64,000 nucleotides of DNA from Halichondria panicea (lineage: Eukaryota > Porifera > Demospongiae > Suberitida > Halichondriidae), in contig NC_087384.1 of the NCBI RefSeq assembly GCF_963675165.1, positions 2,130,501 through 2,194,500 of the forward strand. The letters run 5' to 3'. Below, in pieces: positions 9,376 to 63,211 of the stretch. The notes below the pieces were generated by a model. The model was not told where the DNA came from. It did no database searches and saw only the letters and a list, made by a program, of their open reading frames with translations. Position 1 is the first letter of the stretch, and every line of letters starts with the position of its first letter. The position numbers and the translations under genes are program-made.

Positions 9376-27796
<18,421 letters not shown>

Positions 27797-40935: not shown

Positions 40936-43900
40936 ATGGCAGAGAGGTGCTCACCAGTGGTTGACATGACAATAGAAGAGGCCCTAGAAATAATGGAAGC
41001 TATGATGGATCTGCTTAAGGTACGTATATAAGAAATAACTGTTAGTGAACAAATGTATCCCAAGCAGTTATACGTATAAGTATAATATACAAGTTTCACC
41101 ACACAGATGCATGTCAAGCGCTTTAGCCGATTAAGAATTTGAACACAAAGCAACTAATTTTTAAGACATTAGCTCAGCAATAATGCGCAGAAACTTTTGA
41201 GATTATTCTATAGCTCTAATAGATAATTATAGTTATCGTACACGATATTATATATATAACGTATAGCGCAAAATTTTCGAAGGGCTTAATTTTAACAACC
41301 CACGAGCATTATGCAACGAAATGCTTTTAGAGGCCTTTCTACGAAATATAGTGCCTCGAACATTTTGCGCTATATATACAGGTAGCTATACAGAAATAAA
41401 TTTTATGTTAGTGACCATTTTCAGCAAAAGTTGCCTGTAAGGTGCGGCCTACGAGTACCGGAGATAGTACTAGGAGGGTCACTAGGCACAAGGACAGAGT
41501 TACCAGAACGATACGATGCTGACATCATCATATACTCACCAGGTATATACCATGCAGAGGCTTATTACCAAACTACCTGTTTTTTCAGGCATGCAGTTAA
41601 AAGAGTTTTGTCGACAACTTAACTCTGCATATAGCTACATTTCAACGCTAACCCTCTCACAGACATCACAATTAAGGAGGTGATAAGGAATGGCTATGGA
41701 CTCTGGCTAAACCAGATCAATCAGTTCATGCACTCGGAGAAAGACCTAGCTAAGGGGTTCGAATTCCATGCCCTCACAGACAAGGGGTTGCAATTCACAT
41801 TTGAGGGGATTGAGATTGAGATAATGGTCAGTCCAAATTGGAGAAAGCCAGCTGACTTCTACACCTTCCTAGAGACTTTGAGACCAGTACACAGAAAATT
41901 GTGAGTTGGTACTAATTGGCAGGTAATTTATTATTACGCTTTGGTCTGTCTCTGTAGGTTTACTCAGTGTGCTGCAAAATGGCAGATCCAGTTTCTAAAA
42001 AATCAAGCTACTCGGGTGAGAAAGAGACCGTTTACTATACTATAGATGTCTTATATGTGAAAGTATAGGAGACGTTTTAGTCTTGCTTACAAGCATGCAT
42101 GATTATGAGAAAGCAGTTCTGCCATTACAGATAATTTCATTAATACATAAAAAAAGTATCATCACTATATGATTATAACAAAATTAATGCAGTGTGAGTT
42201 TTGTTGTTTATCTCATTTAGAGAGGTAATTTTTGCCGTGAGTTCATTCGTCGAGCAAAGGCATGGCGTGCGCTCAAGTGGAGGCAATGTACAGGGGGACG
42301 AGGGAGGCCCTCCTCCTATCTGCTCTCCCTCCTGGTCATCCACGCCTACGAGAATGCTCACAAGACACTGGGTGTGTTCTCCACACTCAGTCCAGAGACA
42401 CTGGCACAACAGTGAGTGGGCGGGTAGAGAGGTAACCAAGGGTACAATGGGTACAATGTACATCAATGAGTGGGTGAATAAGGGAGGTATATATAGCTAT
42501 ATATAAGTACATGCATGCATGTACAGTTAGTGGGCAGGTAAGGAAGTAACTATGAGAGCATAGTATATATATAGGCCTAGCTAATAATTACATAAATCGA
42601 AAACATACTACTATATAGCCTCGATCCCAGGCCGAGTTTTCGCTTTTATAACGGTTAGGCAAACAACTGGGCCTGGTACTAGTTGTCTGCGCATGCGTCA
42701 AATTTTCATTGTATATTTGTGGTCGGCAAAAATATTTAATAAATCAATAATGGAAATTTGTACACAGAAAATGCACAGAGTGAGTACACAAAAGATGCAC
42801 ATAGGGAGCTGCTTCACAAAGGCCTGGGGAGTTGCCAGTTGTGCTGCAGCACAATTACAGTGACCCAGGGCAACTTCAGGATGATTGAATGCCTTCAAAT
42901 TACGTTTCAAAAAGATTTAGCAGGCTGCTGGACTTCTCTGATTCTAGGCCCCAACTCGTAACTCATTGCTTGAGAAAACGTAGATTCTCTTGATGTCTCT
43001 GAGCTACCCAGCAACACTCGAATGAGCAGGTCATACTCCAGTCCTGTGTCTGTGAGTATAGGACAATATTAAAAGAAACCAAAGACGGTTAAACCCTTAC
43101 CTCAAACTGTCCAGTCTCGTCCGTTAGTATAGCCAAGAGGAGCACTGTTGGGATAGCTGGATATTAGCCATTGCTCCTGTACAGAGAAGTAGACATTTTA
43201 AATACGTGTAGATCTATACATATTAAATTTCTCGGTTATAGTGTCATTGTCGACGAGCTGATGATGGCAGCACCAAGTTCTCTAGCTCACACTCTTCACT
43301 TGATCCACCATATTAATGATGAAACTATAGTCTACCTACATTCTTGCCAAACATGAACAAGACTTGATAGCATAGCCGGCCATAGGGCCCACGCAAAAAT
43401 ATCTGACCTTAACAAGCTTGACAAAGCTTTATACCTCTTCCCTTGTTGTTCAGTCTTCAGAATAAGCTTCAGAGAAGAGAGAAGCTTCAGCTAAGAGCCA
43501 TTCCAATCGATTCCAATAATGATAAAACGGGAACTGACTTCTAGTACACGATAGTACACGAATATAAATGTCACGAAAGTGAACAAGAATATCCATTCGT
43601 CAGAATCTGACGAACGATTGACGCATGCGCAGACAACTAGTACCAGGCCCAGTTGTTCGCCTAACCGTTATAAAAGCGAAAACTCGGCCTGGGATCGAGG
43701 CTAACTACTATACTGTATATATAACTATATACATACTACTATACTGTATATATACATACTACTATACTGTATAATTATATATAATTATATATAATTATAA
43801 GTATACAACATAATTATATACATTGCTATAAATTATACGTAATATATTTCTGCAACTTTAAGTGCTATAATTATAGCTGATTAATAAATAAACAAATTGT

Positions 43901-44970
43901 TTGTACAGTGTACATATGGTAGCAATCACTGATTTGCACCAACTGTAATGAAATTACTTGCAGTGCCACAGAAGAGGTGAAGAGTATTGTATACAACTGT
44001 GACAAAGTCAAGTGAGTTATAGCCGGTTATTCATTTAACATAAAGGCGACAAGCTGTTGCTATAACAGTATATAAAGTGGAACCTCGGCTACTCGACTTG
44101 TCATATTCAGTTCACCACGATATAATCATGTTCAACTAATAATCAGAAAATGAGCGAGTCCATTAAATATGCATGCATGCGCATTATATCTGTTACTATA
44201 CTATACTGTTACCGGATAATCGAATGGATAAACTACGCCTTTATCTACTCACAAACAGCAGTGCAAATTTAGTGTATGTGGTCGTCTGCACATGCGCAGA
44301 AAATATGTCTCCATGCATGCTGCATGCACCACACTAAATTTGCACTGCTGTTTGTTAAGTGGGTAGATAAAGGCGTGGTTTATCCATTCGATTATCCGGT
44401 ATATAATTATTCAGATATCTGGCCTGCCTCTGGAAATTAAAGGTGTCCGGATAATCAAGTGAAGTACAACCTGTGCCTTAATCTTATAAGTGAACCAAGC
44501 TCTTTTCTACAGTAAAATTTGTAGACGTGTGCCTTGGCTAGTTATTGTAGCAGGATAGACTCACTTAATCAAATTGATAATCATTGCACAACTGGACTTT
44601 ACATAAGATCAACTGCTGTTACATAGTTCCTATGACATCATACATGACATCATACACTGTTATATTATTATAAACAGTGCCAACTGTCACAAAATTAATC
44701 CCCCCCCCACGCACGCACGCACACACACACATACACACATGCAGCATATACTGGGAGCAGTGCTACGCTATGAAGCAGTACCCTACCCTAGTTCCCCTGA
44801 GGGCACCTCGCATCATTGACCCGGCTAACCCCACACATAATCTGTACCTTACAGGGCTCGCAAATTTTGAGCCCTACAAAAGGTGTGGAGAATACGACAC
44901 TGGGACGGGGGATTGGAGTTCTCTAATCAGAAACATTGGAACGCTAGACTTAAGTAAACCAGTAGAATGA
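40936..44970 (+). CDS. OAS: 2'-5'-oligoadenylate synthetase, gene 1 of cluster (320 aa, 7 exons)
   Basis: Exons 40936-41019, 41425-41542, 41663-41900, 41958-42015, 42221-42411, 43964-44011 and 44745-44970. All have AG/GT borders and the joined frame is exactly 963 nt. The nucleotidyltransferase core has G46-S47 and D59/D61 (PERYDADIIIY); the OAS1-type C-terminal domain has RRAKAWRALK, SYLLSLLVIHAYE and the family signature IIDPANPTHNLYLTG. The enzyme family makes 2',5'-linked oligoadenylates from ATP in the cytosol. Two oddities: the third catalytic acid (Asp in gene 4) is Glu120 here, and the usual TAVPG before DxD reads TELPE. Activity is therefore uncertain. Intron 5 holds a 1.08-kb MITE. 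Start chosen because exon 1 has the same 84-nt length as in gene 5. Confidence 0.9.
42618..43701. mobile_element. GCCTCGA-family element, 1084 bp, in intron 5 of OAS gene 1
   Basis: Ends GCCTCGATCCCAGGCCGAGT and the exact complement, TA on both sides; TIRs about 85 bp. It is the largest family member in the window. The interior has short frames (42758-42961, minus 42698-42910) but no recognised transposase. It is absent from the matching intron of the relic at 2.96-3.09 kb. Confidence 0.88.
43704..43850. repeat. AT-rich minisatellite (ACTACTATACTGTATATA units)
   Basis: Three or more units of about 25-30 bp, then an ATAATTATAT array. It begins directly at the right end of the 1084-bp element. 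Confidence 0.75.
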
Positions 44971-46689
44971 ATATAATTATCACAGCGTAATTGTGTCTAT
45001 AACTATTCTATCGAAAAAATTAACATACGAATAGGGGCGTTTCACCATGCAGTATACGTGGGTGTGATTTCAATATAGAAAATATTAGCCTGCATGCATG
45101 GGGGCCAGACCTTTTCTCAGAGGGGAGAGCGGCCGAGGGGCAAGAGAAGAAAAGGCCTGGAGACTCTTGCAGCAGTCGATGTACCTACATGCTCTTGGAA
45201 TGTCAATAATTAGTTAAAACTTGTGATATTGGAGGTTGTAAAGAAGGAGTAGATGTAGCAATACTCTCATTTCGTATTCAAGAGGCAATACTCGCATTTA
45301 TTTGGGTTAAAAATCACAAGACATAGGATATGCATTTCATTGGCTCTGCATGGCCACATTCTGCAGAGCACACGGAAATGCTGCAAGAGTCTCCAGACCT
45401 AATCCTAGGGCTCACAGGACAATGGCATGATATAAACAGATATAATTATAATTATATAATAAATACATGCAAGAGACTGAGTCGAGTCGCAGCCAGTAGG
45501 CTACTCAGTGGCTGCGAGTAGCTAGCTAGCGAGTTTAAGAGTATGGTAAAGTCAAAACTAACATTAATTTTAGTAACGAGTATTAGCTTAATATAGATCT
45601 ACATACACAGTAATACAGTGTGAAGGCATGATCTCAGTCATGGAATAATAGTATAAATTGTCAGTACAGTTTGATCCCTAAAAACTCCTTTCCATTCAAT
45701 ACCAGATGACATCCACCGCCGTTCTTTAGAAACTTGTCAGACACTGAGTGGCTATATAGGTATCCACCATGGGATGACTGGACAAGAGCCAGGAGAATCA
45801 GAGCTTTCATGAGCTTCATCTAGACTCGCAAGCCGTCACTGTTCGCCTGCAACAGTGACGGCTTGCGAGTCTAAGCTTCATGAGCTCGATAATCGATCAT
45901 GCACGGGAAGCCATCTTTGAGTAATAAAATTGAAAGGTCAAGTTTGGAATATTCCTGTAATAAAGTGAGTGAAGTACCGTAAAACCTCTATTTAAGGCGA
46001 CCCTCTAAATATGCAACATTTGGAAACTCTACTTTCGCAAAACGTAATTATTAAAAAGTGTCGCCTTAAATCGAGGTCTTACGGTGTATCGAAATATCAA
46101 AGTTTGTATCCTTCTGACAAGAAACAAGAGCAGTGCATAGCAGATTATATGAATGGCAGAGCAAACAGCATGATCACCAATTGTAAGGAATTGTATTTGA
46201 AGGTGCATCTGGAACACGGTGAAACAATAAAACAAGCTATATATATACATATATACATATATATGTAGAGGCTTCATGGTGGACAAAGTAGAAACACACA
46301 AAGTTACATGCAGCTATAAAATTATTAAGATTAAAATAAACATGGTCTATACATAATTATAATTATTATACACTGTTTCGGATGTGTCTACGGGATTTAG
46401 AATGCAAAGCACTGCTGTAGTACCCCGAGCGTAGCGAGTGTATTACAAGTGCCTGGCTCTATAAAAATGTAGCAAAAGTCAAATATAAGGTATAAGGTCA
46501 GCACCCCCCTAAATGTCTCTAGCTAAGGTAAGCTTTCACTAGACTGAAAAATGAACTCTCCACTAGCGAAGGTTAATCGCACTGTCCACTAGCTAAGATC
46601 AACTCTCTACTATCGAAGGTCACCGTATACTGTTCGCTAGCAAAGGTTAATCGTACTCTCTGGGCCACTGTACAATACAAATTCGATTC
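44971..46689. other. Spacer after OAS gene 1: degraded paralogous flank and repeats
   Basis: Collinear patches match 3732-4360 and 6560-6720. A diverged inverted-repeat unit lies at about 45115-45400 (GGAGACTCTTGCAGCA and TGCTGCAAGAGTCTCC) and a short one at 45980-46085 (CTCTATTTAAGGCGACCC and its complement). Predicted small frames are not supported. Confidence 0.5.
45819..45872. mobile_element. 54-bp hairpin element with 8-bp duplication AGCTTCAT
   Basis: TAGACTCGCAAGCCGTCACT and its complement form a perfect stem of 23 bp with a 7-nt loop. AGCTTCAT occurs on both sides (45811-45818, 45873-45880). An 8-bp duplication is the hAT pattern. Same termini as 27262-27638. Confidence 0.8.
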
Positions 46690-46835
46690 ACATGCAACGT
46701 AGATATACACAAGCTGATTCAAAGGGAAAAAGCATGAGCGTACAAAAGTGACAAGACAGTGGAACCCAATGAGCCAAACTCATATATTTCATCTCCTTGC
46801 TAGCACACTCCAAGAGTATCACGGGGACTGTAGGG
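46690..46835 (+). pseudogene. OAS exon 5 relic (gene 2-like)
   Basis: Weak, broken-frame similarity to the exon 5 segment from IKRAKKW to YLIS, with stops in place of Trp and within the helix. Closely matches the relic at 7035-7140. Its place between genes 1 and 2 marks a lost OAS copy. Confidence 0.6.
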
Positions 46836-47023
46836 AAAGTTCAGCTGTTTTTACAAAGTGTGAGGGCCGGTATAATTATGGCCTCTTCTTAGAGTTTATA
46901 TATAATCAATAGTGTACATGAACTGCATGTGTACCAAAAATCACCACTAGCCTAGTATAACCTATGTCCTATAACCTATGTCATTATTCAGTTGTGTGCT
47001 GTGTTTATGTCTGCGTCTAAATT

Positions 47024-48985
47024 TTGTCTATGTCCCATTTTTTGGAAAAAATCAGACACCTGATGCCTGGCCATGCTGGAAAAGACGGTTTGAACAATTT
47101 TAAGAAGCATCAGGCCTTGCAGGAGAGTCACAGTCCAAATTTTAACAAGTCAATACATTCTTTACTGCCTATAAGAGAAGAAGCGGAGACAGTCCTAGTG
47201 TTCACTAATATTACTGCTGAGGAGCGAAGACAGTATGCTGCAGTAGTGGAAAAATGTGAGGAGTTTTTCCAAGTATACGCAAGAACATCATTTTTGAAAA
47301 AGCTAGGTTCAACCGGAACCAACAAGCAGGAGAGACAGCGGAGCAGTACAATATGGCACTCTACACCCCTTGCCGAAAGCTGTGAATATGGTGAGACAAA
47401 GGATGAGATGATTAGAAATCGCTTATAGTAGTGGGCATCAGAGACAATACACTCTCAGAGAAGTTACAGATGGACCCAGCACTCACACTGGAATCAGCCA
47501 CGATTCGCCAGAGAGAGGCAGTACATGAACAAAAAAATAACTCTTAAACAAGAAGAAGGAGCTGGTAATATCGATTTGTTAAAACGGAAATCAACCTATG
47601 GTCAAGGAAAAGGTCCTCCACGTAACCCCAAGAAAGTTAAACGAGGACAGCCAAAACAGAACAGTTTGGGGGATAAATGCCGTCGCTGTGGACGAGAGAA
47701 GCATTCCTGAGACGAGTGTCCCATGCACAAAAGACGCAGAATGTCATCACTGTAAGCGCAGAGGTCACTACAGTGTAGCTAGTTGCTACAAAAAATCCCT
47801 TTCAAGTGTCCAACAAGAAGAAGAGAGCAGTTTTTCAGACACCTCATTCCTGGATGCGGTCACACAACAAGAGAAGGAGAGCTGGACAGCTAACCTCAAA
47901 GTCAATGACAAAGAGATACCATTTAAGATTGACACAGGAGCCGAGGTCACTGCCATTACAATTGAGACATACATTACCAGGAGAGCAAAGACCAGACAAA
48001 TAACGTACTGTCTGGTCCAACACAACAATCACTAGTATAGTAGTAAAAGGACAAATCACATGTGATCTCACTCTGGGTGCCAGGCGAGCCAGACAGAAAC
48101 TATTCGTCGTCGATCATCTCAAAACCAACCTTCTTGGCTTACCTACTATCAAAGCTCTAAAAATGATTGCCAGAATGGGTTAAGTCCAGGCAACCGATTG
48201 GTTTCACCAAGGTATTCAAAGGACTCAGGTACGCTGTCAAGGGAATACGAAATTAACTTGGAACCTGATTGCGAAACCACACGTAATTTACACCCCAAGA
48301 CACGTGCCCCTACTATTACAACCAAAGGTCCAGTAGTTGCTTAAACGAATGGAAAAGGCAGGAATGATATCAGAGCCGACACGTGGTGCGCAGGTATGGT
48401 TGTGACACCTAAAAAGAACGGAAACCTCCGTATCCGTATCTGTCGATCTCAAGCCACTTGTGAGACTAGAAGTCCACCCACTGCCTACCGTCGACGAGAC
48501 CTTAGCACAGACAACAGGAGCGAAAAAATGTTCTCCAAACTAGCAGCTTTTGGCAGACACCCCTAGCTCCCTCGTCGTGGCTACTAACCACGTTCATCAC
48601 TCCAATAGGACGCTACTGCTTCAATAAACTTCCATTTGGTATTTGCAGTGCACCAGAAGTGCTCCAACGCTGCATGAACAAGATTCTATAGTAGGCCTAC
48701 CGGGAGTATAGTATGTCAGATCGACGACATATTGGTGTTTGGGAGCACCCAAGAGGAACACGACACGAATCTGGAAACGTATTGAGAAAGCCCATGCATG
48801 TATATACACTCAGCAAAGAGAAATGCGAGTACAACATGACTATACAATCACATTCTTAGGACACATGGTTGGCCCGGACGGTGTCAAAGCATACCCAAAG
48901 GAAGCGGAAGCAATTGAAAAAATGGCCCCTCCAACCAACACGTCGAAGCTTCGAAGATTCCTAGGAATGGTAAACCAACTGGGTG
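47024..48985 (+). pseudogene. Degraded Ty3/Gypsy retrotransposon: gag, zinc knuckles, protease, RT fragments
   Basis: In order: a gag-like region (ITAEERRQYAAVVEKCEEFF) at 47024-47520; CRRCGREKHS and CHHCKRRGHY zinc knuckles near 47680-47790; an aspartic protease motif IDTGAEVTAI near 47930; RT pieces LPFGICSAPE (48629) and QIDDILVFGST (48720), with a catalytic IDD; and the RT connection TITFLGHMVGPDGVKAYPKE to FLGMVNQLGG (48845-48985). Several stops and frame changes. RNase H and integrase are absent and no LTRs were found. It is cut by a MITE at 48984. Confidence 0.85.
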
Positions 48986-49185
48986 GAAAATTTCGAGGGT
49001 GTAAATTTTCGTGCAATTGTCTTATTTGGAAAATTTCGCGGGTAGTAAATTTCGTGGAGTTAGGGTGTGGCACTATCTCGCATGCGTATACAAAGCCTTC
49101 CATGGGTTTTAATTTTCGTGTTCTGCAGCCACCCACGAAAAACGCGAAATTAAAAACACCTCGAAATGTTCTACCCGTACGGTAT
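48984..49185. mobile_element. TACCGTATAGCG-family palindromic MITE abutting the Gypsy relic
   Basis: Left arm GGAAAATTTCGAGGGTGTAA (slightly truncated); right end CTACCCGTACGGTA; inner TTTTCGTG and CACGAAAA arms. It replaces the rest of the Gypsy pol frame. Confidence 0.6.
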
Positions 49186-49456
49186 ACTGTACCGCAAGAG
49201 TAGAGGAGAGTTTCACAGAATATAGGGGCATAATTTCTTGTGTTCAAATCAGAATTAAAGACAAAGTATTCCTTGTTGTTGAAAGTAATTAGACTGTGGT
49301 TTCTTACTATAATTATTATTAGACTGTAGTTTTGTCATTCTATTAATAGACTAATATTATGTTATGTCATTATTTGTTTTGTATCTAGAATATTCTGCTA
49401 TAAAAATAGTGTGTTGATATAACTGTGAAAATCAGCACTTGTACCTAGTGCATGCA
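49186..49456. other. Upstream region of OAS gene 2
   Basis: AT-rich, no frame. The promoter should lie here; TATAAAAA at about 49399, 58 nt before the chosen ATG, is the only candidate. Confidence 0.35.
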
Positions 49457-51182
49457 ATGTCTAGGTTACCTAGGCTGTATCTCACTACAGCTGAAGAACG
49501 AAAATGGGAGAGAAAACTTGAAGAACAGAGCCACAGGTATTCCGAGGAACAAAAAATTACGGCAGCTACTTTCGAGCATGTCGATGAACCTCAGCCGACT
49601 GGTTGTTTCAAAGTGGATGATGCTAGAGCATTGGTGATTAATACAGTTATGAAAGCAACAGAAAGAGTAAGGGCTTAAAATACCAAGCTACCGTATATTA
49701 TAGCTGGTTATTTTCGAGACACGAAATTTCCAGGTTTTCGAGGATTGACCCAGAAACACGAAAATTGGTTTACATCCGGTTTAAACCTATCTACTGTAGG
49801 GGTGTGGTCATTTGAACCTCTATCCTAGAAATAAAATCCTTGAAATGTTTTATTTGGGCAATCCGCGAAAATAGCCTGCTATGCGATATTATAATACTGT
49901 ATATAATTATAGAGAGTCATAATTATATATAAATACACACTCATGTCAATTTGCGTATGCTGCATAATTATATAGAGAGAGTTTCAAAAGGATGCGGTAT
50001 TTTAAAGACTAAATTATATGAGGGTGGATCAGTCAAACAAGGTACAGCTGTACCTGGATGCTTTGACATTGACCTGGTGCTTTTCTCTAAAGGTAATTTA
50101 AATAAACCGGCCATTGTACCTCTCCCTGCATGGCTTATTGGCTTTATTCTAAACACAGATTTGAAATCGATAGATTGCATTAAAAACAAAGGCTATCCTG
50201 AGACACTTGAAAAAGTTGACGAGTATTTCGAGAAACAATTCCAAGAAAAGTATCACTGTGAAGATAAACAAGGAGTAACAGTGAAGTTCACATACAAATT
50301 GACTGATGATCGTAAAATCACAGTGAAGCTAAGCTTCTCCTGCTACTGGGACCCTGGTAAGCCTGAAGAGCTTTTTGATATGCTTGAAACAATCGACTCA
50401 CATGAGATAAGAGAACTGTAAGTGATAATAACCATAATCCTATATAATTATACAGTATAGACTCTTGTTAATCCGATCACCCTTGGGCCCGGCCGACAGT
50501 GCAGTTTTGGCTGCAATAACGATGTGGCTGCGTTTCAGAAAGTATATAGCCACAGCTAAATAGCCACTTTGATAATGAATCACTTTGTTCTCTATTTATG
50601 CTATTGTTCGGGTATATAATTGGCCTAGAGCACGCGATGTGCCAGAATAATTATGCCTCGGTGCGCATGCGCAAGTGAGGTATACGGTAGTGTGTTTATG
50701 TGTGTGTGTAGACTGTTTCAGCTGCTCAAGGATCAATGAAATGCAAGTAAGAGTTTCTATAGGCTTCTAGTCATGTTTTCTTGGCTTAATTGGTATTTGT
50801 GGATTTGCAAAACAAAGCTTCATTCTCGAGTTATGCCTAGTTTTGCTTATACTTGGAATGCCATTGCAGCCTTTTCAGAAGAAGAGTCCGTAGCAAAACT
50901 TGTTCACCAGTGTTGCTACTCTACTTAGTAGTTAGCTCTGCACTAGTATTGGTAGCTGCAAGAGTGAGAAGAGGGCTACAAGGCTCTGCTGACTTTTTTT
51001 TTTGCTGTTTTATATATCGACTTAAATTTTTTCGTGCTATCGCGCGACCTGAGCACCCTTCTACTGATATTCCTAGAAACGCCACTGCTTTCTCATGGCA
51101 GAGTTCAAGTTTATGCAGGTGAAAATAACTTTTGATGACAAATTGTTATGCCTCGGTGCGCATGCGCAAGCGAAGTATACGG

Positions 51183-51227
<45 letters not shown>

Positions 51228-54200
51228 CGTGTCTGTTTGTCTGTCTGTCTGTGTGTGTATAGACTGCTACAGCTGCTCAAGGATCAATGAAGTGCAAGTA
51301 AGAGTTTCTATAGGCTTCTAGTTATGTTTTCTTGGATTTTAATTCGTGGATTGGCAAAATAATGCTTCGTTCTATAGAGTTATGCCTATACTTGGAATGC
51401 CTTTTCAGAAGAGCACGTATATATAGCCAAATTTATTTCAATGAGTGTTGCTACTCTACTTAGTAGTTAGCTCTGCACTATAGAACGCTAGCTATTGGTA
51501 GCTGCAAGAGTGAGAAGAGAGCTGCAAGGCTCTGCTGATGGCAGCCATTAATTTTAGACTTGAACTTTGGCATCGATCGTTTTTAACAACAATCATGGTC
51601 GATCATTACCCACTCTTTGAGTTTGCATGCATCAATGAAGAATGTTTATTATGTGTATAAAATTAAGCTTTATGTTATGTAGCTTTGGCATCTCCACCGA
51701 GGCATCAGCACCTGCGGTGCTTTCATTGAATTAGCTGGAGCTAATAAACGCCACTCTTGAACAGTGGCCTCTCTCGAATTGTAGCCTCCTCTTCCAGTAA
51801 AATGAAACATTTAGTATATAGCCACGGCTCCTGCATGATCAAGCATATACGGTAATACTATATATAGGACAGCCAGAAGTGACCAATATAAAAGAATATA
51901 GCGAGTTGGCTGCGTTTTGAGCAATATACAACATAATAATAATGATCAAGCTAGCAATCGGAGCCAAATGAAGCGACCGGTATATTGAGGTGACCGTATT
52001 TCAGAGAGCCAGATTAGCGAGAGTCTATACTTACTGTATATAATGTATACGGTTACCTCATGTATGAGATATGACCATGCATGCTTTGAATAATTATACT
52101 CCGACCTATGCACAGAATTATATATACATGCAGGTTCATTCCTGGTACATTCAAAATGCAGTCTGACTTTATTAAGTGTGTGGACCCTGAAAATCACCCT
52201 AGAGGAAATCATAGGACCTGCCAAAACGTAAAAATTATACCTAGAATCATGCAGTTAGTTTGCGAGTGAAGAAAATGAGCCAAATCAGATCAGCAGAAAA
52301 TGTGACCCTTTGCAAGCTACCATGCAGCATAATATCAGGAGTGTATGAAGAGGAGTATCCAACTGTAGCAGTTGTAGTGTAAACCATGTTTCGGTACCAG
52401 TATGTCATACTGCGTCACTATCAGACCGCATCTTAAGTGGGTGCGTAGAATTAGTTAAAAATGATATCAGCATACACGCATGTGGTTTGTACCTCCAAGC
52501 CCACATTTATGCATGGCTAACAGTTTACACAACTACAAGTGTTAGTGACGGATTCAATCCGAAATATAGAATGGAATGTGCATGGGAGTCGCATACTCCT
52601 CTTCATACACTCCTGATAATATATACCAGAGATTTTGCGATTTTATTTTTTTGAAGTGACAAAAAATTGCACATGTTTGATGCTCATAAATATTCTAGTG
52701 ATACGGATGTACGTAAAAATGACATACCGTATAGCGGGTAATTTTCGTGGGGTAATGTATTCATTATTTTCGTGGGCAAGCTGGCCTCCACAAATAACGT
52801 AGGCGTGGCTTACGGGAACATAGGAATGCAGACAGGCAACAAGACTAAATGAAATTTTTACTCACGAAAACCACCGTTTCTCAATTAAGTTGAACGATTT
52901 TTTACCCCACGAAAATTACCCGCTATATACAGTATATACATGCATTGTTATACAGATACATCATCTGATTAAAAGGGCAAAAAAGTGGAGAAACAAACAA
53001 GATTGGACAGTCCACACTGAACATGGAGATCTACATGGCGAGCCTGGCTCCTATCTCATTTCCTTGCTAGTGATCACAGCACACTTTCATGTCGAAGAGA
53101 AGTTCGGGGAATACGGGTCCAAAACACAGCATTTTAGGCAGTATACAGCCAGGTATATAACCCTTTATAATGTTTATATATATCTGTCTGTCTTGACATC
53201 TGAGGTTGTACGAGTGTACCTAACAAAAGTCATGAATTATATAGAGTGACTGATGAATTCAAGAGAATTGTTAAGCAGATAGGAGAAAAAGAAGACTTTG
53301 GGTGAGCTAGTACCGTATCTGGAGTTCTGTGATATTATTTTCGTATGAAACCCTATATATAGGCATGGTTTACCGGAATCCATGTATAATGATGCAAAAG
53401 AAATTTTTAGTCACAAAAAGTACCGCTGTTCAATTTTTTTACCCCATGAAAATTACTTAGGGTGACATAAAATTATTTTCACCATTGTCAAACGTAGACT
53501 TTTTCTGCGATTTCAAGTACTGTTTAGTTCATTTTGCTGGTATTAAATTCTGCTAAAAGTTGTGAAATCACAGTGTTTGTAATTAATTACTCATAATAAT
53601 TTTATGTGGTTTCTATAATCATTCCCGAGTACACATTTTTGCGATTTTACTCTCATCCGCAGAATTAGCAGAAATTAATACCCAATTTTATGTCACTTTT
53701 AAGTACAGTAGAACCTAGCTAATCTGGACCCTTTTTAAAGTTCGAAGACCGGACAAAAAATAATATTAAACTGAAAAGAAGAGGGCTGTAGAATAGACTA
53801 CTGCACATGCGCACTTTATTAATAAACTGCTCAATATACCTCACTGAATACAATGGCTATACTGCAAAGAAAACGAAAAGAGCTCACAAGACTCGCTGTA
53901 TATTGGAGAGAAAGTTGAGATAAAATTAGCTAGCAGCTTTCCTTCTGGCCACAGTAATATCACATGCATGCATTTGAGTGTTCTTTGTTAATGATACTTA
54001 ATGACATCCGAAATTTTCATGTATATTTGAATGGGGGTTTGGTCCCGCTCATTCAGATTAGCGAGGTTCTACTGTATATATATATATATATAAAGTCCTT
54101 TATAAGCGCTTTGTTTTCGAGGAGCACAATTTTTAAGGTTCGAAGCCAATCCGCGGAAACTGCATTTTAGCTCCTCAAAAGTAAAGTACCTTACATTATT

Positions 54201-54489
54201 GAAACAATAATTGATATGAAGCACTATAATGATGACATACATGTACCTTGCATGCACTATTACTCTTAATAGTCCAGTGCCTTTCAAAGCTAAAGACTCT
54301 GGGCTAAAGATGATCCGAGAGAAGTACTCTCACCTCCTTCCTGCTCCGTGGTGGCTGATTGACCCGGCCAATCCTGCCAACAATGTGTACATCAGTGGCA
54401 TGTCTGGTTGGAGGAAGGACAAAGGATGGCAGGAATTTGCTATGAAGGTGGACAACATTGACCTCACCATAGACGTCCAGCAGCAGTAG
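49457..54489 (+). CDS. OAS: OAS-family protein, gene 2 of cluster (382 aa, 7 exons), catalytic site altered
   Basis: Exons 49457-49666, 49978-50092, 50159-50417, 52134-52227, 52956-53152, 53245-53301 and 54273-54489; joined length 1149 nt, in frame. Core: GGSVKQGTAVPGCFDIDL with D100/D102. C-terminal domain: HLIKRAKKWRNK, SYLISLLVITAHF and LIDPANPANNVY. At the third catalytic position (DVD in gene 4) the segment reads TVKLS, so Lys165 replaces Asp; metal-dependent catalysis is unlikely. Exon 1 (70 codons) is long and charged, unlike the 28-32 codons of genes 1, 4 and 5. Intron 2 is only 66 nt, a multiple of 3 and without stops. Introns 3 and 4 hold dispersed repeats and MITEs. Exon 4 (donor AAC/GTAAAA) is the weakest exon. 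Confidence 0.83.
50653..51110 (+). repeat. Dispersed repeat (TGCCTCGGTGCGCATGCGCA family), truncated
   Basis: First of two tandemly placed copies in intron 3 of OAS gene 2. Ends irregularly near 51110, where the next copy takes over. Confidence 0.6.
51148..51727 (+). repeat. Dispersed repeat (TGCCTCGGTGCGCATGCGCA family), most complete copy
   Basis: Runs from ATGCCTCGGTGCGCATGCGC through (GT)17 at about 51187-51221, CTGCTCAAGGATCAATGAAG, TTTTTAACAACAATCATGGT and GCATCTCCACCGAGGCATCA to GCGGTGCTTTCATT. Non-coding. Confidence 0.7.
52334..52617. mobile_element. 284-bp TIR element (ATCAGGAGTGTATGAAGAGG ends)
   Basis: About 28-bp TIRs reading ATCAGGAGTGTATGAAGAGG and the complement. Target duplication unclear. 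Lies in intron 4 of OAS gene 2. Confidence 0.65.
52725..52935. mobile_element. TACCGTATAGCG-family MITE just upstream of OAS gene 2 exon 5
   Basis: TACCGTATAGCGGGTAATTT and the complement AAATTACCCGCTATATACAG. It ends only about 20 nt before the exon 5 acceptor, so it supplies most of the intron's 3' part. Confidence 0.7.
53706..54074. mobile_element. Tigger/pogo-like MITE in intron 6 of OAS gene 2
   Basis: CAGTAGAACCTAGCTAATCT and the complement ending GGTTCTACTG, TA on both sides. Contains the same transposase-start remnant (AKKTKR-like) as 20461-20871, diverged. Confidence 0.7.
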
Positions 54490-54636
54490 ACACTTTACAA
54501 AATGCTGCTATACATAATAATTATAGGATATTCCAACAGCTGCATGCATATTTGTAACCTTAGCTATATACTTACGCATGCATCAGTGTTTGTATAATTA
54601 TGGACCAGTGCATGCAACCGTGTATATATTATCTAT

Positions 54637-55035: not shown

Positions 55036-56069
55036 TCTACAGTACACCAGTAATAAATATGCAAGCCATGCACCCGACTAGATACCATTACCACTACATA
55101 GTTATATATTGCTCTAGGTATCACTGTAAGCGTTGAGTACAGCTACCCATTACCGCAACGCCCCTTGAAGGGTGAGCCGGACCATGACTGAGGGCTGTTA
55201 ATATGATTAGGAAGCCCCTCTAATTAATTAGAGGAGTGTAACCTCGCTAATTAGGTAATGATTAAGCGTTTCTAATAATTATGTTGCTCCCCTAATTAAG
55301 TACTTGGGGGTAAAGAGGTGGCCTAGCCAACCACGGCTCAGTCATGTCGTAACGACAGAGAAGTGTATAGAAACCAAGGGAGGGTTGGGTGTGGGGCTTT
55401 AACTCAGGAAGCTATAATCAAGCATGAGGTGTAGAGATAATCAAGCTATAATCAAGCACATGCGCGTATAGATGCTGGGCAGTATACATAATGCAGTAGG
55501 CGAGGCAAGCGGATTAACCTTGTTTAACTACCTTAAACTTCATTTATGACTTGTGTATAACAGCATATGTTATGTAGCTTTGGCATCTCCACCAAGGCAT
55601 CAGCACCCCTGCGGTGCTTATAATACCGTATATAGCGGGTAATTTTCGTGGGCAAGCTGACTTCCACGAAGTTTTAATGCAGGCGTGGGGTATCGGAACG
55701 TACAAATGCTGTGCAGGCAATGAGACTAAACGAAATTTTTACTCACAAAAATCACCGTTTTCCCCGAAAATCTCGCTATACGGTAGTCATTTCTTGGATA
55801 ATATTTTCGTGATTGCTGTTGCAAAGGTGCATATAAACACTGTAGGCAAGGTCACTTCGTTCGTGGGTAAAATATTCGTGGTCAGACCTTCAACCACAAA
55901 AACCACAAAAATTACCCTATAGTATATTATTACTGCACACAGGAAACTGATTATTTTCAAGAATATACAGATTCACTCTAAAACCTGATAATTATACACA
56001 GACTACAATAATTACTATTACAGAGAACCTTCTAGAATCTTGGAATCTATATGAAACTACTTAATTTGA
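55036..56069. other. Spacer between OAS genes 2 and 3
   Basis: 55140-55360 holds irregular AATTAA palindromes between CCGGACCATGACTGAGGG and GGCTCAGTCATG. 55624-55785 is a TACCGTATAGCG-family MITE, and a related partial copy follows to about 55925. No gene recognised. Confidence 0.5.
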
Positions 56070-56077
56070 TATAAAAG
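56070..56077 (+). promoter_or_regulatory. TATA box candidate of OAS gene 3
   Basis: TATAAAAG, 56 nt before the first ATG of the locus (56126) and 81 nt before the in-frame ATG at 56151. Spacing fits a short 5' leader. Confidence 0.4.
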
Positions 56078-56125
56078 AGTTTAAAATTGGGGAGCAGTCT
56101 TCCAGACAGGAATTATAACTTCAAG

Positions 56126-57714
56126 ATGGCCTACTTTAGGCAACCTACACATGCTGAGGCTGAAGCATGCAGCCGTTAAGGAGTTGGTGTCTACTCTACA
56201 GGTAAGAATGAGGTATGCATGCAGAAACCTGTATAATTATATATGTTCAAAATGCAGCTTAATTTGTCAAGCTATACTCCTCCAAAAATTAGAGTGAGTG
56301 AGATCGTAAAAGCTGGCTCTATGACATGGAACAATTGTGCCTGGAAGCTTTGACATTGACCTGGTGCTCTACTCTCACGGCAAGCAAACCTGCGTGCATG
56401 CATGCATGTATAGCTGTATAGAGCATGCAACACCTGCCCATTCACTGGGCCTATATCACAACGTTGAAGTGCTAACTCAGAGGGCACCTGGAATCCCTAA
56501 CACCTAATGAGTATATAGCTATAATTATAGCTTAAAAAATTTGAGGCGAAACTGTAATTATAGACATGATCATCAAAAGCATACACCATGCATGCACGCA
56601 AACATATATTTAATTTTTTATATTAGTTGTGGCCTAACTGCATGAATAACACATACATGTTGTGCATGCAGATGTGAGCGGAGATACCATCATAACTGAC
56701 GGATATGACCAACACATACGACGGCTAAAAGCTTTCATTAGCAATCGACAGGTGTTTGGAGCAGGGGTCATTACAGAGCCCAACATAACAAGATATGCTG
56801 TGCAGTTCAAGTACAAGAGCTACATCGACGTGGATCTCTTGATCAGTCCAGTTTGGTGGAGTGATTATCCAAACGATCCGACAATGTTTTTTCAGTTCCT
56901 TCAAGATAGTGTGCCAAGACACAACCTGGAAGTCATGCACAGATTTAGTGTGAACGCTTCCAAGTGGCAAGTGGAGTTTATGAGAAAAAAGATCAGAAGG
57001 TACTATTACATAACAATGAATTTTTAATTTTTAATGTGCATGCCATGCTTTGTGTTGCATGCATGCCTATAATTTTATAACGCTTATATCGTACACTGCA
57101 TGAACTCCATGCGTTCTGCTTGAGTCATCAGTAATCTTGCGTGTATGATATTTATAGGTCAAGGTGTACATAGTCCGGGCTAAAGCATGGAGGAATTGCC
57201 TATTGCCTAAAAGTAGAGTAGGACGAAGAAGCCCTAGTTCCTTTCTAATATCCTTGTTGGTGCTTCGAGCCTATGAAAACCAGCAGTCGAGCCAAACTTA
57301 TGGCTACCGTGGACACAATGAAGCTAGAAGGTAAAATTGATTACCATGCATGATTAAACTTATAATTATGCAGTACCACTGAAGAGTTGAAGAAACTTGT
57401 TCGGAATCATAGCAGAATGGAGTATGTTTAATTAACTATAATTATATAGATAACATTATCTCAAATAATTTGTATACACATGCAGTATCTATTGGGAAGA
57501 CTACTACAAAGCTAGAGACTACCCCACCCTCTTTCCCTCGTCCACTCCACGCCTGGTCGACCCGGCCAATCCAGCTAACAATGTCTACCTGTCTGGCATT
57601 GGTACGTACCCACCCAACAAAAGGCCAAGTGAAAACAAGCAGGACTGGAGTCAGTTTGTGGACAAAGTGGAATACTTTGACCTTGAGAAGAGTGTGGAGG
57701 AGATCACACGTTAA
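56126..57714 (+). pseudogene. OAS: OAS, gene 3 of cluster (frameshifted)
   Basis: Exons: 1, to 56201 (ATG at 56126 leads to a stop; ATG at 56151 is in frame); 2, 56258-56379; 3+4 fused, 56672-56999; 5, 57158-57330; 6, 57374-57421; 7, 57486-57714 (stop TAA). The protein keeps all three Asp (FDIDLVLYSHG; SYIDVDLLISP), FSVNASKWQVEFM, VRAKAWRN and LVDPANPANNVYLSG. Breaks: exon 2 changes frame right after the conserved Gly-Ser (about 56315), the donor of exon 2 is GC instead of GT, and exon 4 leaves in a phase that does not fit exon 5 (an A6 run precedes it). The intron between exons 3 and 4 is absent. Either a recent pseudogene or an allele/assembly error in two places. Confidence 0.78.
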
Positions 57715-58321
57715 GACCGTTCAAGAGAGCTGACTAACTTTAGTAACTTAAACAGACAATTAAGACTATATTATAGCAGCACACAATATTATAGTGTAGT
57801 AGTGTATTATTATAGTAACTTGTTTCGCTGATGGCTTATGGCTGCATGATTATTAAATTTGTTTGCTGACCTTTGACTATAATTATATACACCAATACCT
57901 AAGTTTGATTGAGGTAATCCAGTTGGGTATACTCATTAGCAGTGCATGCATTGTGTATAGTTCTAGAAAATTAACAACTGACAAATTTAGTAGGAATATA
58001 GCCTTATCCTTTATTCATTATTATTTGATGGATTATTACTTATCTCAAAACAATGAATATTCTTAAGGGACTTTTTATGGGAATCAGCTCTAACAGTATA
58101 AGAACTGATGCTATAAGCATGATGATGGTGCAAGACGTGGGTGCAGCTGCATGTTGGGAGCATGGTAATACATCAATTAATGAGCCTATATGGACTTTCC
58201 CTGGGACAGTCCCTTTGCCCTTTGCTGACTAATCTCGTAAACACTACTTAAGAACACAAGACAAACACACACATATACACCCAATTAGAGATATAGACAT
58301 AGACAAATAAGAACATAACAA
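57715..58321. other. Spacer between OAS genes 3 and 4
   Basis: AT-rich, no repeat family recognised. It must hold the gene 3 terminator and gene 4 promoter; no strong TATA or AATAAA seen. Confidence 0.4.
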
Positions 58322-59781
58322 ATGGACTTTAGGAAGTGCCACCCTCCCCACAGCAATGAGCTACTCACTCACAAGGCTGCTAGAGAAGCAACAGATGAGT
58401 TGGCTACCCTCCTAAAAGTACTATAGAGCAACAGGTATAATGTGCAAAATTCACTTATCTGCTTTACATGACAGGACCAACAGCCAATTACTATCAGTGA
58501 AGTCATCAGAGCTGGCTCTCTGGGACACGGCACTGCAGTTCCTGGAGACTTTGATCTGGACATGGTCATCTACTCAAGAGGTGAGCACCTGCATGCTAAA
58601 CATTATTACATGAGGATTTTGTAGGCAGCTAACTCCTAAAATTTTGACAGACCTAGATCCACACAAAGTTCTTGAGCAAGGCTATGACTACTGGCTAGAG
58701 AAGCTTGAGAAATTCTTAAAAAGAAGCAGCGATGTGCAATTTAAGAATAGGACACCTCACTCTGTCCAGTTTCGGTACAAAGAACTCATTGACGTGGACA
58801 TGCTGGTGACCCCTTGGTGGGACAGTGTCTCCCAGCTGAGCCTGTTCTTGGACAAGATCCCGGTTCAAAAGCGCTTCCCGTGAGTTAAAATTTAAGAACA
58901 GAACTGCATGCATGCATGCATGCATAATAATAATTATACGATGGCCTATGTGTAGAAACAGGATTGCATGCACTCCTATATAGTAGAAATAATTAAATCA
59001 AGTATGCATGCCAATACATGCAGGTTCTCAATAGGAGCCTCAAAATGGCAGGTGCAATTTATGCAGAAGCAAGACAATGAGGTAAGAGATACATTATTAT
59101 GGATTGCAGTTCATCTACACATTGTGCATGTATGTATATACCACAATGGTATAGGTCAAAGTGCTTATTCAGCGTGCTAAGGCATGGAGAAACAAACAAT
59201 GGCCAAATGTTTACCCAGGACAGAAGAAGCCCAAGTCCTACTTTCTTTCTTTGCTCGTTTTGAAAGCTTATCAGCGTGCAAAGAAGAAATTTGGAAATCA
59301 AATCTTTCGTGATATGGCTGAAAAGTACGTACACGCATGCAGTTATCGTATACCCTTACATCGATTTTTTCACGCATAATTATACTATAATTATATTCAT
59401 GCTATAGGACCTCCTATGAGCTTAAAGACCTTGTTCTTAGGGAAGATCAACAAGAGTAAGTCGGTCTGTACATTGTTAATCACTATATATACTGTATGGG
59501 TATATCTAGATCTGTTACACAAACACACACATCACTCATTGAAATACAGTATTCACTGGGACGACTACTACATTGTGGGAGGAACTGGTAACACGATTCT
59601 GCATGACACCCCAAAACCCCCTCGCCTACTGGACCCAGCCAACCCAGCCAACAACCTGTTTGATACCGGCTTCACCACTACACGTACCGGTGACAGGTCA
59701 CATGATGAGGGGGAGGGGAACTGGGCTGAGATAAAGAAGAAGATTGAGACAATCGACCTTACTGTAGATATAACAGCCTAA
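58322..59781 (+). CDS. OAS: 2'-5'-oligoadenylate synthetase, gene 4 of cluster (312 aa, 7 exons), best active candidate
   Basis: Exons 58322-58417, 58475-58580, 58651-58879, 59024-59081, 59155-59324, 59408-59455 and 59550-59781; joined length 939 nt, in frame. The whole coding region fits in 1.46 kb with short introns and no transposon. Core: AGSLGHGTAVPGDFDLDMVI with D59/D61, and the third acid D117 in LIDVDMLVTPWW. Thus G-S and all three catalytic Asp of the nucleotidyltransferase fold are present. Then FSIGASKWQVQFMQKQ, VLIQRAKAWRNKQW, SYFLSLLVLKAY and the C-terminal LLDPANPANNLF. Expected to make 2',5'-oligoadenylates from ATP. Sponge OAS enzymes are reported to work without added dsRNA, unlike vertebrate ones (family knowledge). 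First-exon ATG chosen by phase and length. Confidence 0.93.
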
Positions 59782-60293
59782 TAATTATAAGAGTATTATA
59801 ACTCATCATACAGTATTGAACTTATAAGTATTATGTTGAAATTACTAATTGACAGCTAGTGCATGAGATTAGGTATGGTATAATTATATACTTTAAACTT
59901 AACATATTCCTAATATTACCGTATTCTACCGAGATTATGCACACTATAATTGCATGCTACAAAGCAGCTACAGTATACTTTGCTTGCGCATGCGCACCGA
60001 GGCATAACAAACATTAATTTCACAACTGCAGAATAGCAAATAATGAGAAATTGTACTGTGAAAATATGCCACCTTAAGGTATTTACAGTGAATACTCCGA
60101 GTTCAGAGAAACTGAAATTCATGGGTATATAGCACTACAGAGTATATTCATTGAATTACTGCATTATCACAACTACAGGAATGCAATCCTTGTATGGAGT
60201 GAAAATCCCCACACACACACACATGCAGTGGAATGAATAGAGTGCACGTATACATGCAGCAACAAGCCTATAAAGTAATTGCTATAATAAACT
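59782..60293. other. Spacer between OAS genes 4 and 5
   Basis: Contains one end of the TGCCTCGGTGCGCATGCGCA repeat (minus, about 59980-60010). TATAAAG at 60269 lies only 19 nt before the gene 5 ATG, so it is a doubtful TATA box. Confidence 0.4.
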
Positions 60294-63211
60294 ATGGCGA
60301 CAACCCAAGTCAGAGTAAAGAGGCCATTAAGAAAAGCTCGGATATTAAGCAACAAAGTTAGAACTACACTGATAAAAGTAAGTCAACAAACTTTCCAGCT
60401 GGAATCTGTTATCAGAGGCTTTAGACAGTTACTAAATTAATTGACATCACACAGGCATCTAAGAAGAAAGAAATAGACATTGACATATCAGATGTTGTTG
60501 TTGGAGGATCAGTGGCTCATGGTACAGCATTATATATACCTGGGCACTTTGACATAGACCTTACTGTCTTCTCACTAAGTAAGTAGTATAAAGTCTTAAG
60601 AGAGTTTATATTCCCATCAAGTAATTAGTCTTATTTAGAAAAAATTTGCATATTCAAGCTTTGAAGTGGCCACTGCTAATGAGGTGTCTATCCAACTAAG
60701 AAACCTGCTAGCAGGTCATTATCTGAGTTAGTGACCTGCTAGCAGGGCTCTAACTAGTACCCATAAAAATGCATTTTCTAAGTGAGATGAGTGATTAGTA
60801 GCTTCTGCAAGCCACTACACTCCCTCAGGTTTACTATCCAGCTAAGAAACCTACTACACATGGTCTAACTAATACATAGACAGTTATAGGAAACATCTTA
60901 CGTATACAAATAATTATTATACCTTCAAATAATTATTACCCGAGGCACGCGTAGGCGGCCACGAGTAGTAGTCGTTTGGTTTGTTTGTCTGTTTGTAATT
61001 TCTGAGTCTGCTTATCTGGATGCCATAGCGCTGCATGGATAGCCTTCACACAACAAGTTATTGTGGCAGATTTCGATGGTAAAGCTTATAAAAGTGAGCA
61101 AAAGCAAAAGCTAAACACGACCTTTCTTCGAGCTAGAACTACATATTTGCAGTTGAAATTATCCTTTACCATGCAGTCTCTATTAAAATAGTTTGTGGCT
61201 TTACCATGCATCCCTATGGTTTTTATAGATCTACTTATTCATGTCAACATGCAGCCGAGGGTTAGCACTTCAATGCTCTGCATGTATGTAATAGCTTGGT
61301 AAATTAACTTTAGCGCTATCAACAGGTGGCAGATTACATAACTCAATATAACGAGCAGTGTATGCTCAGAGCAATAATGCATACAGAATACGTTCACAGT
61401 TCAGAGTTCTAGTCCTTTATACACTGTATAATTATGATAGGTCTACATCCAATAAAGCAGACAGTAACCGAACAGACGTATAAAGACGGTATGGAACAGA
61501 TCATTCACTGTCTCCAAAAGCACTTGACAAATCACTACAAAATAAAGGACTCTGAGGAACTGTATGGAAACCATGGTCGACGTTTCCAATGTTGGCACTT
61601 CCAAGTGGATTTATCACTGAGCCCAAAATGAGAAAATCTAGAGGATATGTACAAATATATGAAGATGAACCCAAGCACAAGAAAGTTGTAAGTTAATTGC
61701 ATGCATTCTATTGACGTATATAGTACTAAGTAGTATTGGCACATATAATACAGAGAACTCAAGCATTCACTAAATCAAAGCATTGTGGGGCGAGCCTGCA
61801 TGCATGAGCAAACTAAGGACAGGTGCGGAAGAGAATATGGAAAGAAACGAATATATTATAGGCAGTGTAATTTATGACAATAATTATTGATAATTGTGTG
61901 CATGATGTATACTTGTGTGACAGTCATGAGAGGGGTTATGTTTATGGTGCATGTGATTGAACCAAATTATAGGCTTGATTACTAAGAAGTTTTATTCGCT
62001 CATGTATAGTGTATAGTGGACAAGTGTCAGGTCATTCTCTTCCACCTGCTGTTTCCTAAATGTCTTCCCTAACTGCGTTTTCCTCTTCCTCTTCAAATTC
62101 GTGCCTTTTGGCTTTATCTCCTCTTCATTTTCATCCTTTTCCTGATAATTATCGCAAAAAAGTGTATTGTTCTGTGCAAAGGTTATACTGTCTATTTTGG
62201 CTTTAATAACTGCCTGTACATGATTTTCTGAAAGAGCTATTCTCATGGCCATGCATGCACACCTTCTCGGTGTCAGCGTGCCCTGTCTTGATCACTTTGT
62301 GTTGTCAGCCTCTGCTCTTTCATAATATAAGAGTTTGATTTTTCTTGCTGTTTCTTCAGGTTCACTTTCTTGTCCCCTTACGTACAAAAACGCGGATTTC
62401 CGATCAGCATCCTCTCTCTGTATTCCACACTACTGTCGGGCTCGCTCATGCTCGCCCCAAATATGTGCAAGCATGCATGCATGCATGGCTCGTAATTTTG
62501 TGTTTGCCTCAGGTTCTCTACAGGAGTAACAGAGTTTCATAATCATATCCTGAAGTCACAGCCAGATAGGGTAAGTCCTAGAATTCTATAAACTACCGTA
62601 TACACACACTTAACGCGCACAAATTAAATTACAGGTAAAGGTGCTCATCAAAAGATTCAAAGTATGGAGAAACGAAATATGGCTTCCTGACTCACCAAGT
62701 GGTGGTCGCCCAAAATCTATATTCCTTTCATTCCTTGTTATAATCTCATACAACAGTGCACCAGAGTCTTATAAACAAGCCAGAAGACCGCGAACATTAG
62801 CAAAATGGTATAAAGTTATTTAGAAAGCATAACATAGTTATTGACTAATAATAATTACCACATGCATGCATGCAGGATGACAAAAGATTTGCAACGTCTT
62901 GCCAGTGAAAAAAGTTCAAGTTTGGAGTAAGTATAATTATATAATAGTAACGATCATTCTCAATAATATACACGTATCTATAATGCACATCGAAATTATT
63001 TGGCAGCCTCCAGGTTCCTGGGCAGAACCCTTTAATTATGGTGAAGTACAGCGATATCCTTCCAACCGCCACGCATCCTTGATCCAGCCAATCCTTTCAT
63101 CGAACAGGCCTCAGGGAAGTAGAACCAAGCGGGGGAGAAGACATTAAAAAATGATGGGAGATATTTGCAAAGAAAATTAAAACACTTAATCTTGTGATGA
63201 ACATCACATAG
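60294..63211 (+). pseudogene. OAS: OAS, gene 5 of cluster (premature stop, broken last exon)
   Basis: Exons 60294-60377 (84 nt, as in gene 1), 60455-60578, 61441-61687, 62513-62570, 62635-62807, 62876-62926 and a damaged exon 7 up to TAG 63209-63211. Exons 1-6 join in phase. Core: GGSVAHGTALYIPGHFDIDL with D61/D63, then FQVDLSLSPK, which keeps the third Asp but is followed at once by TGA (61629-61631). After the stop the frame continues normally to the donor. Exon 7 has PPRILDPANPFIEQASGK and WEIFAKKIKTLNL in different frames and no clear acceptor. A truncated protein would lose the whole C-terminal domain, so a pseudogene is most likely. Confidence 0.8.
61992..62252 (-). CDS. Small basic/acidic open frame inside gene 5 intron 3 (doubtful)
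   Basis: 86 codons from ATG, with an acidic stretch (EKDENEEE) followed by basic KRKRK, NLS-like. No family recognised, no splice partners or repeat counterpart seen. Could be chance. Confidence 0.15.
   Translation of the reverse strand: MAMRIALSENHVQAVIKAKIDSITFAQNNTLFCDNYQEKDENEEEIKPKGTNLKRKRKTQLGKTFRKQQVEENDLTLVHYTLYMSE

What the first reader, a model, noticed from the sequence alone, without database searches (positions are those of the whole stretch)
40936..63211. Tandem cluster of five 2'-5'-oligoadenylate synthetase loci with one shared exon plan
Five plus-strand loci in 22 kb all carry the OAS core (G-S, DxD) and the C-terminal DPANP-x-N signature. Exon 4 is 58 nt in genes 1, 4 and 5, exon 6 is 48-57 nt, and the phase after each exon is the same (0, 1, 2, 0, 2, 2). 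This is a local family expansion of an innate-immunity nucleotidyltransferase outside vertebrates. The 7-exon structure differs from the vertebrate OAS1 structure, which I recall as 5-6 exons.
Basis: partly seen in the sequence, partly recalled or inferred. Interest (0 to 1): 0.85.

Follow-up and report, generated by a model that had tools for sequence, protein, structure and literature searches.

The report
Slice of a sponge OAS megacluster
The five antiviral-type OAS genes in this sponge window are real, though three are broken, and they are one slice of a roughly one-megabase array holding about 80 whole or partial OAS gene copies arranged as a repeating gene cassette.

Summary
Window 40936-63211 carries five plus-strand genes of the 2'-5'-oligoadenylate synthetase (OAS) family with the stated exon phases. 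They are of unequal health: G1 and G4 are open; G2, G3 and G5 are broken copies, and G3 lacks intron 3. The animal is the demosponge Halichondria panicea.

The real find is larger. The five are the first members (types C-D-B2-A-E) of a cassette of OAS paralogues repeated about ten times, in both orientations, over C8:1.62-2.56 Mb. I count 81 last-exon copies (78 on C8, 3 on C5) and 57 core-exon copies. A 2018 survey gives 1-12 OAS genes per species. Paralogue types are old (some group with other sponges' OASs); cassette copies are young (dS mostly 0.03-0.15). Five types show dN/dS of 0.08-0.22. Two types have changed the third catalytic Asp (C to Glu, D to Lys). Types A and D model as OAS1.

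Unexpectedly, three open and two broken genes for LRR-membrane-kinase-KEN endoribonuclease proteins lie between the two arms of the array. They resemble IRE1, not RNase L.

Sponge OASs and their non-vertebrate gene structure were already known; the megacluster was not found in the papers I could search.

The parts
40936..44970 (+). G1, OAS type C, open; exons 40936-41019, 41425-41542, 41663-41900, 41958-42015, 42221-42411, 43964-44011, 44745-44970; third catalytic Asp is Glu
   Evidence: Spliced model without frameshift or stop; OAS1_C 39.0 bits, cut-off 19.9; residue table
49490..54489 (+). G2, OAS type D, broken copy; exons 49490-49666, 49976-50092, 50159-50417, 52134-52227, 52956-53152, 53245-53301, 54273-54489; third catalytic Asp is Lys
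56126..57714 (+). G3, OAS type B2, broken copy; exons 56126-56201, 56258-56379, 56672-56999, 57158-57330, 57374-57421, 57486-57714; intron 3 absent, GC donor after exon 2
   Evidence: Three frameshifts against the open copy C8:2327000-2328501, which equals P0137
58322..59781 (+). G4, OAS type A, open; exons 58322-58417, 58475-58580, 58651-58879, 59024-59081, 59155-59324, 59408-59455, 59550-59781; GS, DxD and third Asp kept
   Evidence: Spliced models; 93% identical to H. panicea P0001
60473..63193 (+). G5, OAS type E, broken copy; exons 2-5 at 60473-60578, 61441-61687, 62513-62570, about 62635-62814, last exon about 63008-63193; first exon not found
   Evidence: In-frame stop in exon 3, last exon in two frames, DPANPFIE
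3088..3707 (+). Type-C OAS fragment: exon 6 (3088-3135) and exon 7 (3497-3707) only
   Evidence: 92.96% identical to G1 over exon 7

Best explanation
The five loci are types C, D, B2, A and E of one copy of an OAS gene cassette in Halichondria panicea. An old set of OAS paralogues (about ten types) lies in fixed order over up to about 45 kb. That block was later copied about ten times, into a minus-strand arm (1.62-1.83 Mb) and a plus-strand arm (2.07-2.56 Mb) of one chromosome, with a small offshoot on C5. Shown here: family, exon plan, repeated order, recent copying, decay of many copies, low dN/dS for several types. Inferred: types A, B1, B2, F, G and H, which keep GS, DxD and the third Asp, are metal-dependent nucleotidyltransferases that join ATP into 2',5'-linked (perhaps also 3',5'-linked) oligonucleotides without needing dsRNA, as reported for other sponge OASs; type C (Asp to Glu) is weakened or altered; type D (Asp to Lys) is a non-catalytic OAS-fold protein, comparable to OASL of mammals. 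Also inferred: copy number is driven by conflict with viruses or other intracellular parasites.
Against: No activity, expression or infection data. 11 of 27 near-complete loci in the stretches that I held are broken, so much of the array may be inert. dN/dS is 0.35 for H and 0.53-0.75 for B2, the E subgroups and D. In the five low-dN/dS types, A and G each compare an open copy with a broken one, and the counts are small (for F, 7 synonymous and 2 nonsynonymous changes). Type labels rest on my reading of best matches.
Confidence: 0.8

Rival explanations
1. The array is largely an assembly artefact: unmerged haplotypes or misjoined contigs make a few OAS genes look like about 80.
For: Only one assembly could be searched; some copies give identical scores; read depth is not available.
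Against: Copies on one contig, in both orientations, differ by 0.5-15% in blocks of 1.5 kb or more; each copy has its own breaks. A database contig of 581,556 bp carries both P0017 (C8:1.97 Mb) and P0149 (window G2, C8:2.18 Mb) as exact matches, judged by equal contig length only.
Confidence: 0.08
2. The expansion is neutral: recombination between repeats keeps duplicating and killing copies, and only a few genes matter.
For: 11 of 27 near-complete loci are broken; dN/dS 0.53-0.75 in D, B2 and the E subgroups.
Against: B1, C and F compare two open copies each at dN/dS 0.16, 0.22 and 0.08; types old enough to group with other sponges' OASs persist.
Confidence: 0.2
3. These are cyclic-oligonucleotide synthases (CD-NTase/CBASS-like) rather than OAS proper.
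For: NCBIfam's nearest model is CBASS_cyclase_a (44.5 bits for P0001, 58.6 for P0008, far under its cut-off of 200). Type D has no Pfam hit.
Against: OAS1_C is over cut-off for G1 and types A and B1; OAS1 leads the PDB sequence search; OAS chains lead the fold comparison by about 6-7 Z units at the top; named sponge OASs are in the same profile family.
Confidence: 0.03

Closest known systems
Sponge OASs (Geodia cydonium P0143, Suberites domuncula P0138, Lubomirskia P0007, Ephydatia P0002 and P0006)
   Same: Same domain make-up and length; matched by one profile; B types group with Suberites at 100/100.
   Different: Here an ordered cassette is copied about ten times; two types have altered third Asp; G3's type lacks intron 3.
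Vertebrate OAS1/OAS2/OAS3
   Different: About 20-24% identity in the structural alignment; exon plan reported to differ (PMC2852836, passages; not tested here); sponge OASs reported to be dsRNA-independent (PMC6307210, passage).
OASL (OAS-like, non-catalytic)
   Different: No ubiquitin-like domains reported by Pfam in P0016; the Asp-to-Lys change is its own.
Bacterial CD-NTases (CdnC, CBASS)
   Different: OAS chains match clearly better; no neighbouring CBASS genes were looked for.
IRE1 and RNase L (for the linked LRR-KEN genes)
   Same: Kinase plus KEN RNase; IRE1 best at 1.8e-53.
   Different: LRR ectodomain instead of IRE1's luminal domain or RNase L's ankyrin repeats; KEN closer to IRE1 (1.8e-5) than to RNase L (0.0058).

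Membership tests
OAS family | OAS1_C domain (PF10421) | tested here: met
   Over cut-off for G1, the G4 query, P0001 and P0008. Type D (P0016): no hit.
OAS family | Nucleotidyltransferase core: GS motif and DxD | tested here: met
   13 of 13 aligned rows; also readable in G2, G3 (frameshift inside the motif) and G5.
OAS family | Third catalytic Asp | tested here: inconclusive
   Kept in A, B1, B2, E, F, G, H; Glu in type C (G1), Lys in type D (G2). Met for the first group, not met for C and D.
OAS family | OAS fold | tested here: met
OAS family | 2',5'-oligonucleotide synthesis from ATP | not testable with these tools
   Needs an enzyme assay.
Vertebrate-type OAS | Activation by dsRNA | not testable with these tools
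   Sponge OASs are reported to be dsRNA-independent (PMC6307210, passage).
Sponge OAS exon plan | Same junctions as published sponge OAS genes | not tested
   Reintamm 2008 not held; title only.
RNase L (for the linked LRR-KEN genes) | Ankyrin-repeat 2-5A sensor N-terminal to pseudokinase and KEN | tested here: not met
   Kinase and KEN present, but the N-terminal part is LRR; no ankyrin family among the Pfam hits of the three open frames.
IRE1 (for the linked LRR-KEN genes) | Kinase plus KEN of IRE1 type with an IRE1 luminal domain | tested here: inconclusive
   Kinase and KEN of IRE1 type; LRR found where the luminal domain would be.

The most novel reading that the evidence does not exclude
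The OAS array and the LRR-membrane-kinase-KEN endoribonuclease genes lying between its two arms form one linked defence locus: OAS-made 2',5'-oligonucleotides, or a common trigger, would drive KEN RNases that arose from IRE1 independently of RNase L, giving sponges a parallel of the OAS-RNase L pathway that they are said to lack. KEN was the one effector family that I looked for. Apart from a three-row locus on C3 (probably IRE1) and one weak row on C14, its four C8 rows all fall inside the 0.7% of the genome spanned by the array. A second, more distant pair (LRR-KEN P0023 at about 51% and OAS fragment P0153 at about 77% identity) sits on contigs of the same length, 659,124 bp.
Probability: 0.06. 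Interest if true: 0.9.

Novelty: new variant of a known kind. Interest (0 to 1): 0.6.

Why it matters
[quoted passage not shown] An ordered OAS cassette copied about ten times, with catalysis-altered types kept inside it, suggests that OAS is an actively diversifying family in an early-branching animal. It supplies a natural enzyme series (Asp, Glu or Lys at the third metal site) and a marker locus for sponge-parasite conflict. Finding IRE1-like LRR receptor RNases between the arms makes the question of what reads 2-5A outside vertebrates directly testable.

Tried and rejected
Pfam OAS1_C against the whole genome found nothing, and nothing in its 14 control genomes either: a limit of the method for spliced genes, so I used protein queries. 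The control genomes of the KEN search also gave nothing. My first G4 model began exon 3 too early, with a poor acceptor; P0001 and the other types showed the start after ...ACAG, giving the 310-aa model. The wrong 324-aa form was still the query. An apparent frameshift in G1 exon 3 was the same mistake. RNase L as the identity of the linked KEN genes was rejected. Phage collection: no match. No tRNA in the window. Print searches that bear on an OAS expansion of this size listed none; Halichondria panicea + oligoadenylate returned one paper, on lectins (listing only). PMC8242945 (H. panicea immune repertoire) has no occurrence of the OAS terms in its main text. Listed papers on oyster and other mollusc immunity were not read, so a larger OAS count elsewhere is possible. 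Searches for LRR + IRE1 + KEN + RNase L gave no paper and for invertebrate RNase L six, not read. In the last-exon tally I merged second pieces of one exon and dropped two weak rows (C8:2262042 and 2467648, E 0.07). The 78 C8 coordinates were typed; types were assigned from best matches and in a few cases (for instance H at 1815 kb) are unsure. The 57 core-exon rows were counted by eye.

Full report
What is in the window. A splice-aware protein-to-DNA alignment (my script) gives five plus-strand OAS-family loci. G1 (40936-44970) is open, exons 84, 118, 238, 58, 191, 48 and 226 nt with stop. G2 (49490-54489) follows the same plan, but its usual ATG is a Thr codon (another in-frame ATG lies about ten codons upstream) and exon 2 lacks one base. 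G3 (56126-57714) has three frameshifts and lacks intron 3. G4 (58322-59781) is open, exons 96, 106, 229, 58, 170, 48 and 232 nt with stop. G5 (60473-63193) has an in-frame stop in exon 3 and a last exon split over two frames. So 2 of 5 are open. The phases 0,1,2,0,2,2 hold for G1, G2 and G4, and for G3 apart from the lost intron. A sixth piece, exons 6-7 of a type-C gene, lies at 3088-3707.

Which animal. The nearest proteins are named Halichondria panicea and lie on a contig of 7,091,591 bp; the window's contig C8 has exactly that length. Three of these proteins equal my models of sister copies outside the window letter for letter. G4 itself is 93% identical to P0001, so P0001 comes from another copy.

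The megacluster. One G4 query gave 155 exon matches in the own genome; of the rows listed, four are on C5 and the rest on C8:1.62-2.56 Mb, in both orientations. An exon-7 composite gave 74 rows. After merging pieces of one exon and adding six type-D sites and five type-E sites, there are 78 last-exon copies on C8 and 3 on C5. Core exons give 57 of the 141 rows (55 on C8, 2 on C5; counted by eye). The order repeats: C-D-B2-A-E, then in the longer copies more E, D' and H, then B1-E-F-G. There are ten C starts, nine of them followed by D. Adjacent-type coincidence is 138, against a mean of 25 and a maximum of 45 in 2000 shuffles. The window's five genes are the head of the copy at 2171-2202 kb.

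Age and selection. Self-comparison of 259.5 kb shows 24 blocks of 1.5 kb or more at 85-99.5% identity. Between cassette copies dS is 0.03-0.15 for types A, B1, B2, C, F, G and within the two E subgroups, 0.004 for D and 0.385 for H. dN/dS is 0.21 (A), 0.16 (B1), 0.22 (C), 0.08 (F), 0.15 (G), 0.35 (H), 0.58 (B2), 0.53 and 0.60 (E subgroups) and 0.75 (D). The A, B2, D, G and one of the two E comparisons involve a broken copy; B1, C, F, H and the other E comparison are between open copies. Counts are small. In a tree of 32 proteins the H. panicea types do not form one clade (at least four changes are forced by well-supported branches): B groups with Suberites at 100/100, C with a metagenome protein at 99/94. 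So the paralogue types are older than some sponge lineages and the cassette copies are recent. Of 27 near-complete loci in the stretches that I held, 16 are open and 11 broken; the E and H models lack a confirmed first exon, and the E models cover only part of the last exon.

Catalytic residues. GS and both Asp of DxD are kept in 13 of 13 aligned rows. The third Asp is kept in 11; it is Glu in type C and Lys in type D. How each type works is inferred from known OAS chemistry; no activity was measured. Sponge OASs are reported to make both 2',5'- and 3',5'-linked products without dsRNA (PMC6307210, passage).

Between the arms. Looking for an effector, I searched the genome for the RNase L/IRE1 KEN domain (PF06479). 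It gave 8 rows: three on C3 (probably IRE1), one weak on C14, and four on C8 at 1.961-1.976 Mb. The fetched stretch holds three long open frames (736, 675 and 682 aa) with LRR, protein kinase and KEN domains (the membrane segment is read from the sequence by eye), plus two broken copies, one of which carries the fourth KEN row. PDB places kinase and KEN nearest IRE1 (1.8e-53; KEN alone 1.8e-5 against 0.0058 for RNase L). Of 120 listed database relatives (284 found), 31 carry LRR, kinase and KEN, none of them named by a source. On two database contigs, judged only by equal length, LRR-KEN and OAS pieces occur together: 581,556 bp (P0017, P0149; exact matches to this genome) and 659,124 bp (P0023, P0153; more distant). 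This is a lead, not a demonstrated pathway.

What is known. Sponges have OASs of unknown role; a recombinant Geodia enzyme was characterised; their gene structures differ from those of vertebrates (PMC2852836, passages). A 2018 survey gives 1-12 OAS genes per species and reports OAS but no RNase L in four sponges (PMC6307210, abstract and passages). I found no report of an OAS array of this size, within a library that lacks most subscription papers.

Verdict. The new part is the scale and order of the array around them, and the IRE1-like receptor RNases between its arms.

Noticed in passing
L026:2310-4520 (-), L027:1373-3400 (-), L027:4719-6767 (-), i.e. C8:1.961-1.975 Mb: Three open frames with LRR, protein kinase and KEN RNase domains, plus broken copies at L026:5120-6652 and L027:8425-9891; IRE1-like by PDB match. 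Frames on the opposite strand look like GCN1 exons (recalled, not tested).
   Followed up: partly
window 2-2401 (+): An 800-aa open frame with reverse transcriptase, RNase H and integrase domains, Ty3/gypsy-like (label recalled), just upstream of the type-C OAS fragment.
   Followed up: partly
window 10492-11037 (-), 12066-12743 (-), 38813-39106 (-): Death-like and ZU5-like stretches, both under Pfam's cut-offs; the third frame looks similar to the first by eye but had no Pfam hit. It lies inside a block 99.5% identical to C8:2315399-2318404.
   Followed up: partly
window 33364-33924 (-), 35403-35897 (-): A PHD-finger frame and an integrase fragment, both over Pfam cut-offs; probably a mobile element.
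   Followed up: no
window 47021-49203 (+): Frames between G1 and G2 that look like broken gag/pol pieces by eye; not searched.
   Followed up: no
window about 42617-43703 (+): Inside intron 5 of G1, a stretch of about 1.1 kb bounded by inverted repeats of some 40 bases (read by eye), like a small transposon without genes.
   Followed up: no
window about 16346-16640: A long CA/TG dinucleotide run (seen in the frames).
   Followed up: no
L021/L022 (C5:3143501-3155500): A small OAS offshoot on another chromosome: types G (open from exon 2 on), H (broken) and an E-like piece.
   Followed up: partly
P0001 and P0008 (types A, B1): NCBIfam's nearest model is the bacterial CBASS_cyclase_a (44.5 and 58.6 bits, cut-off 200), in line with the shared OAS/CD-NTase ancestry.
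   Followed up: no
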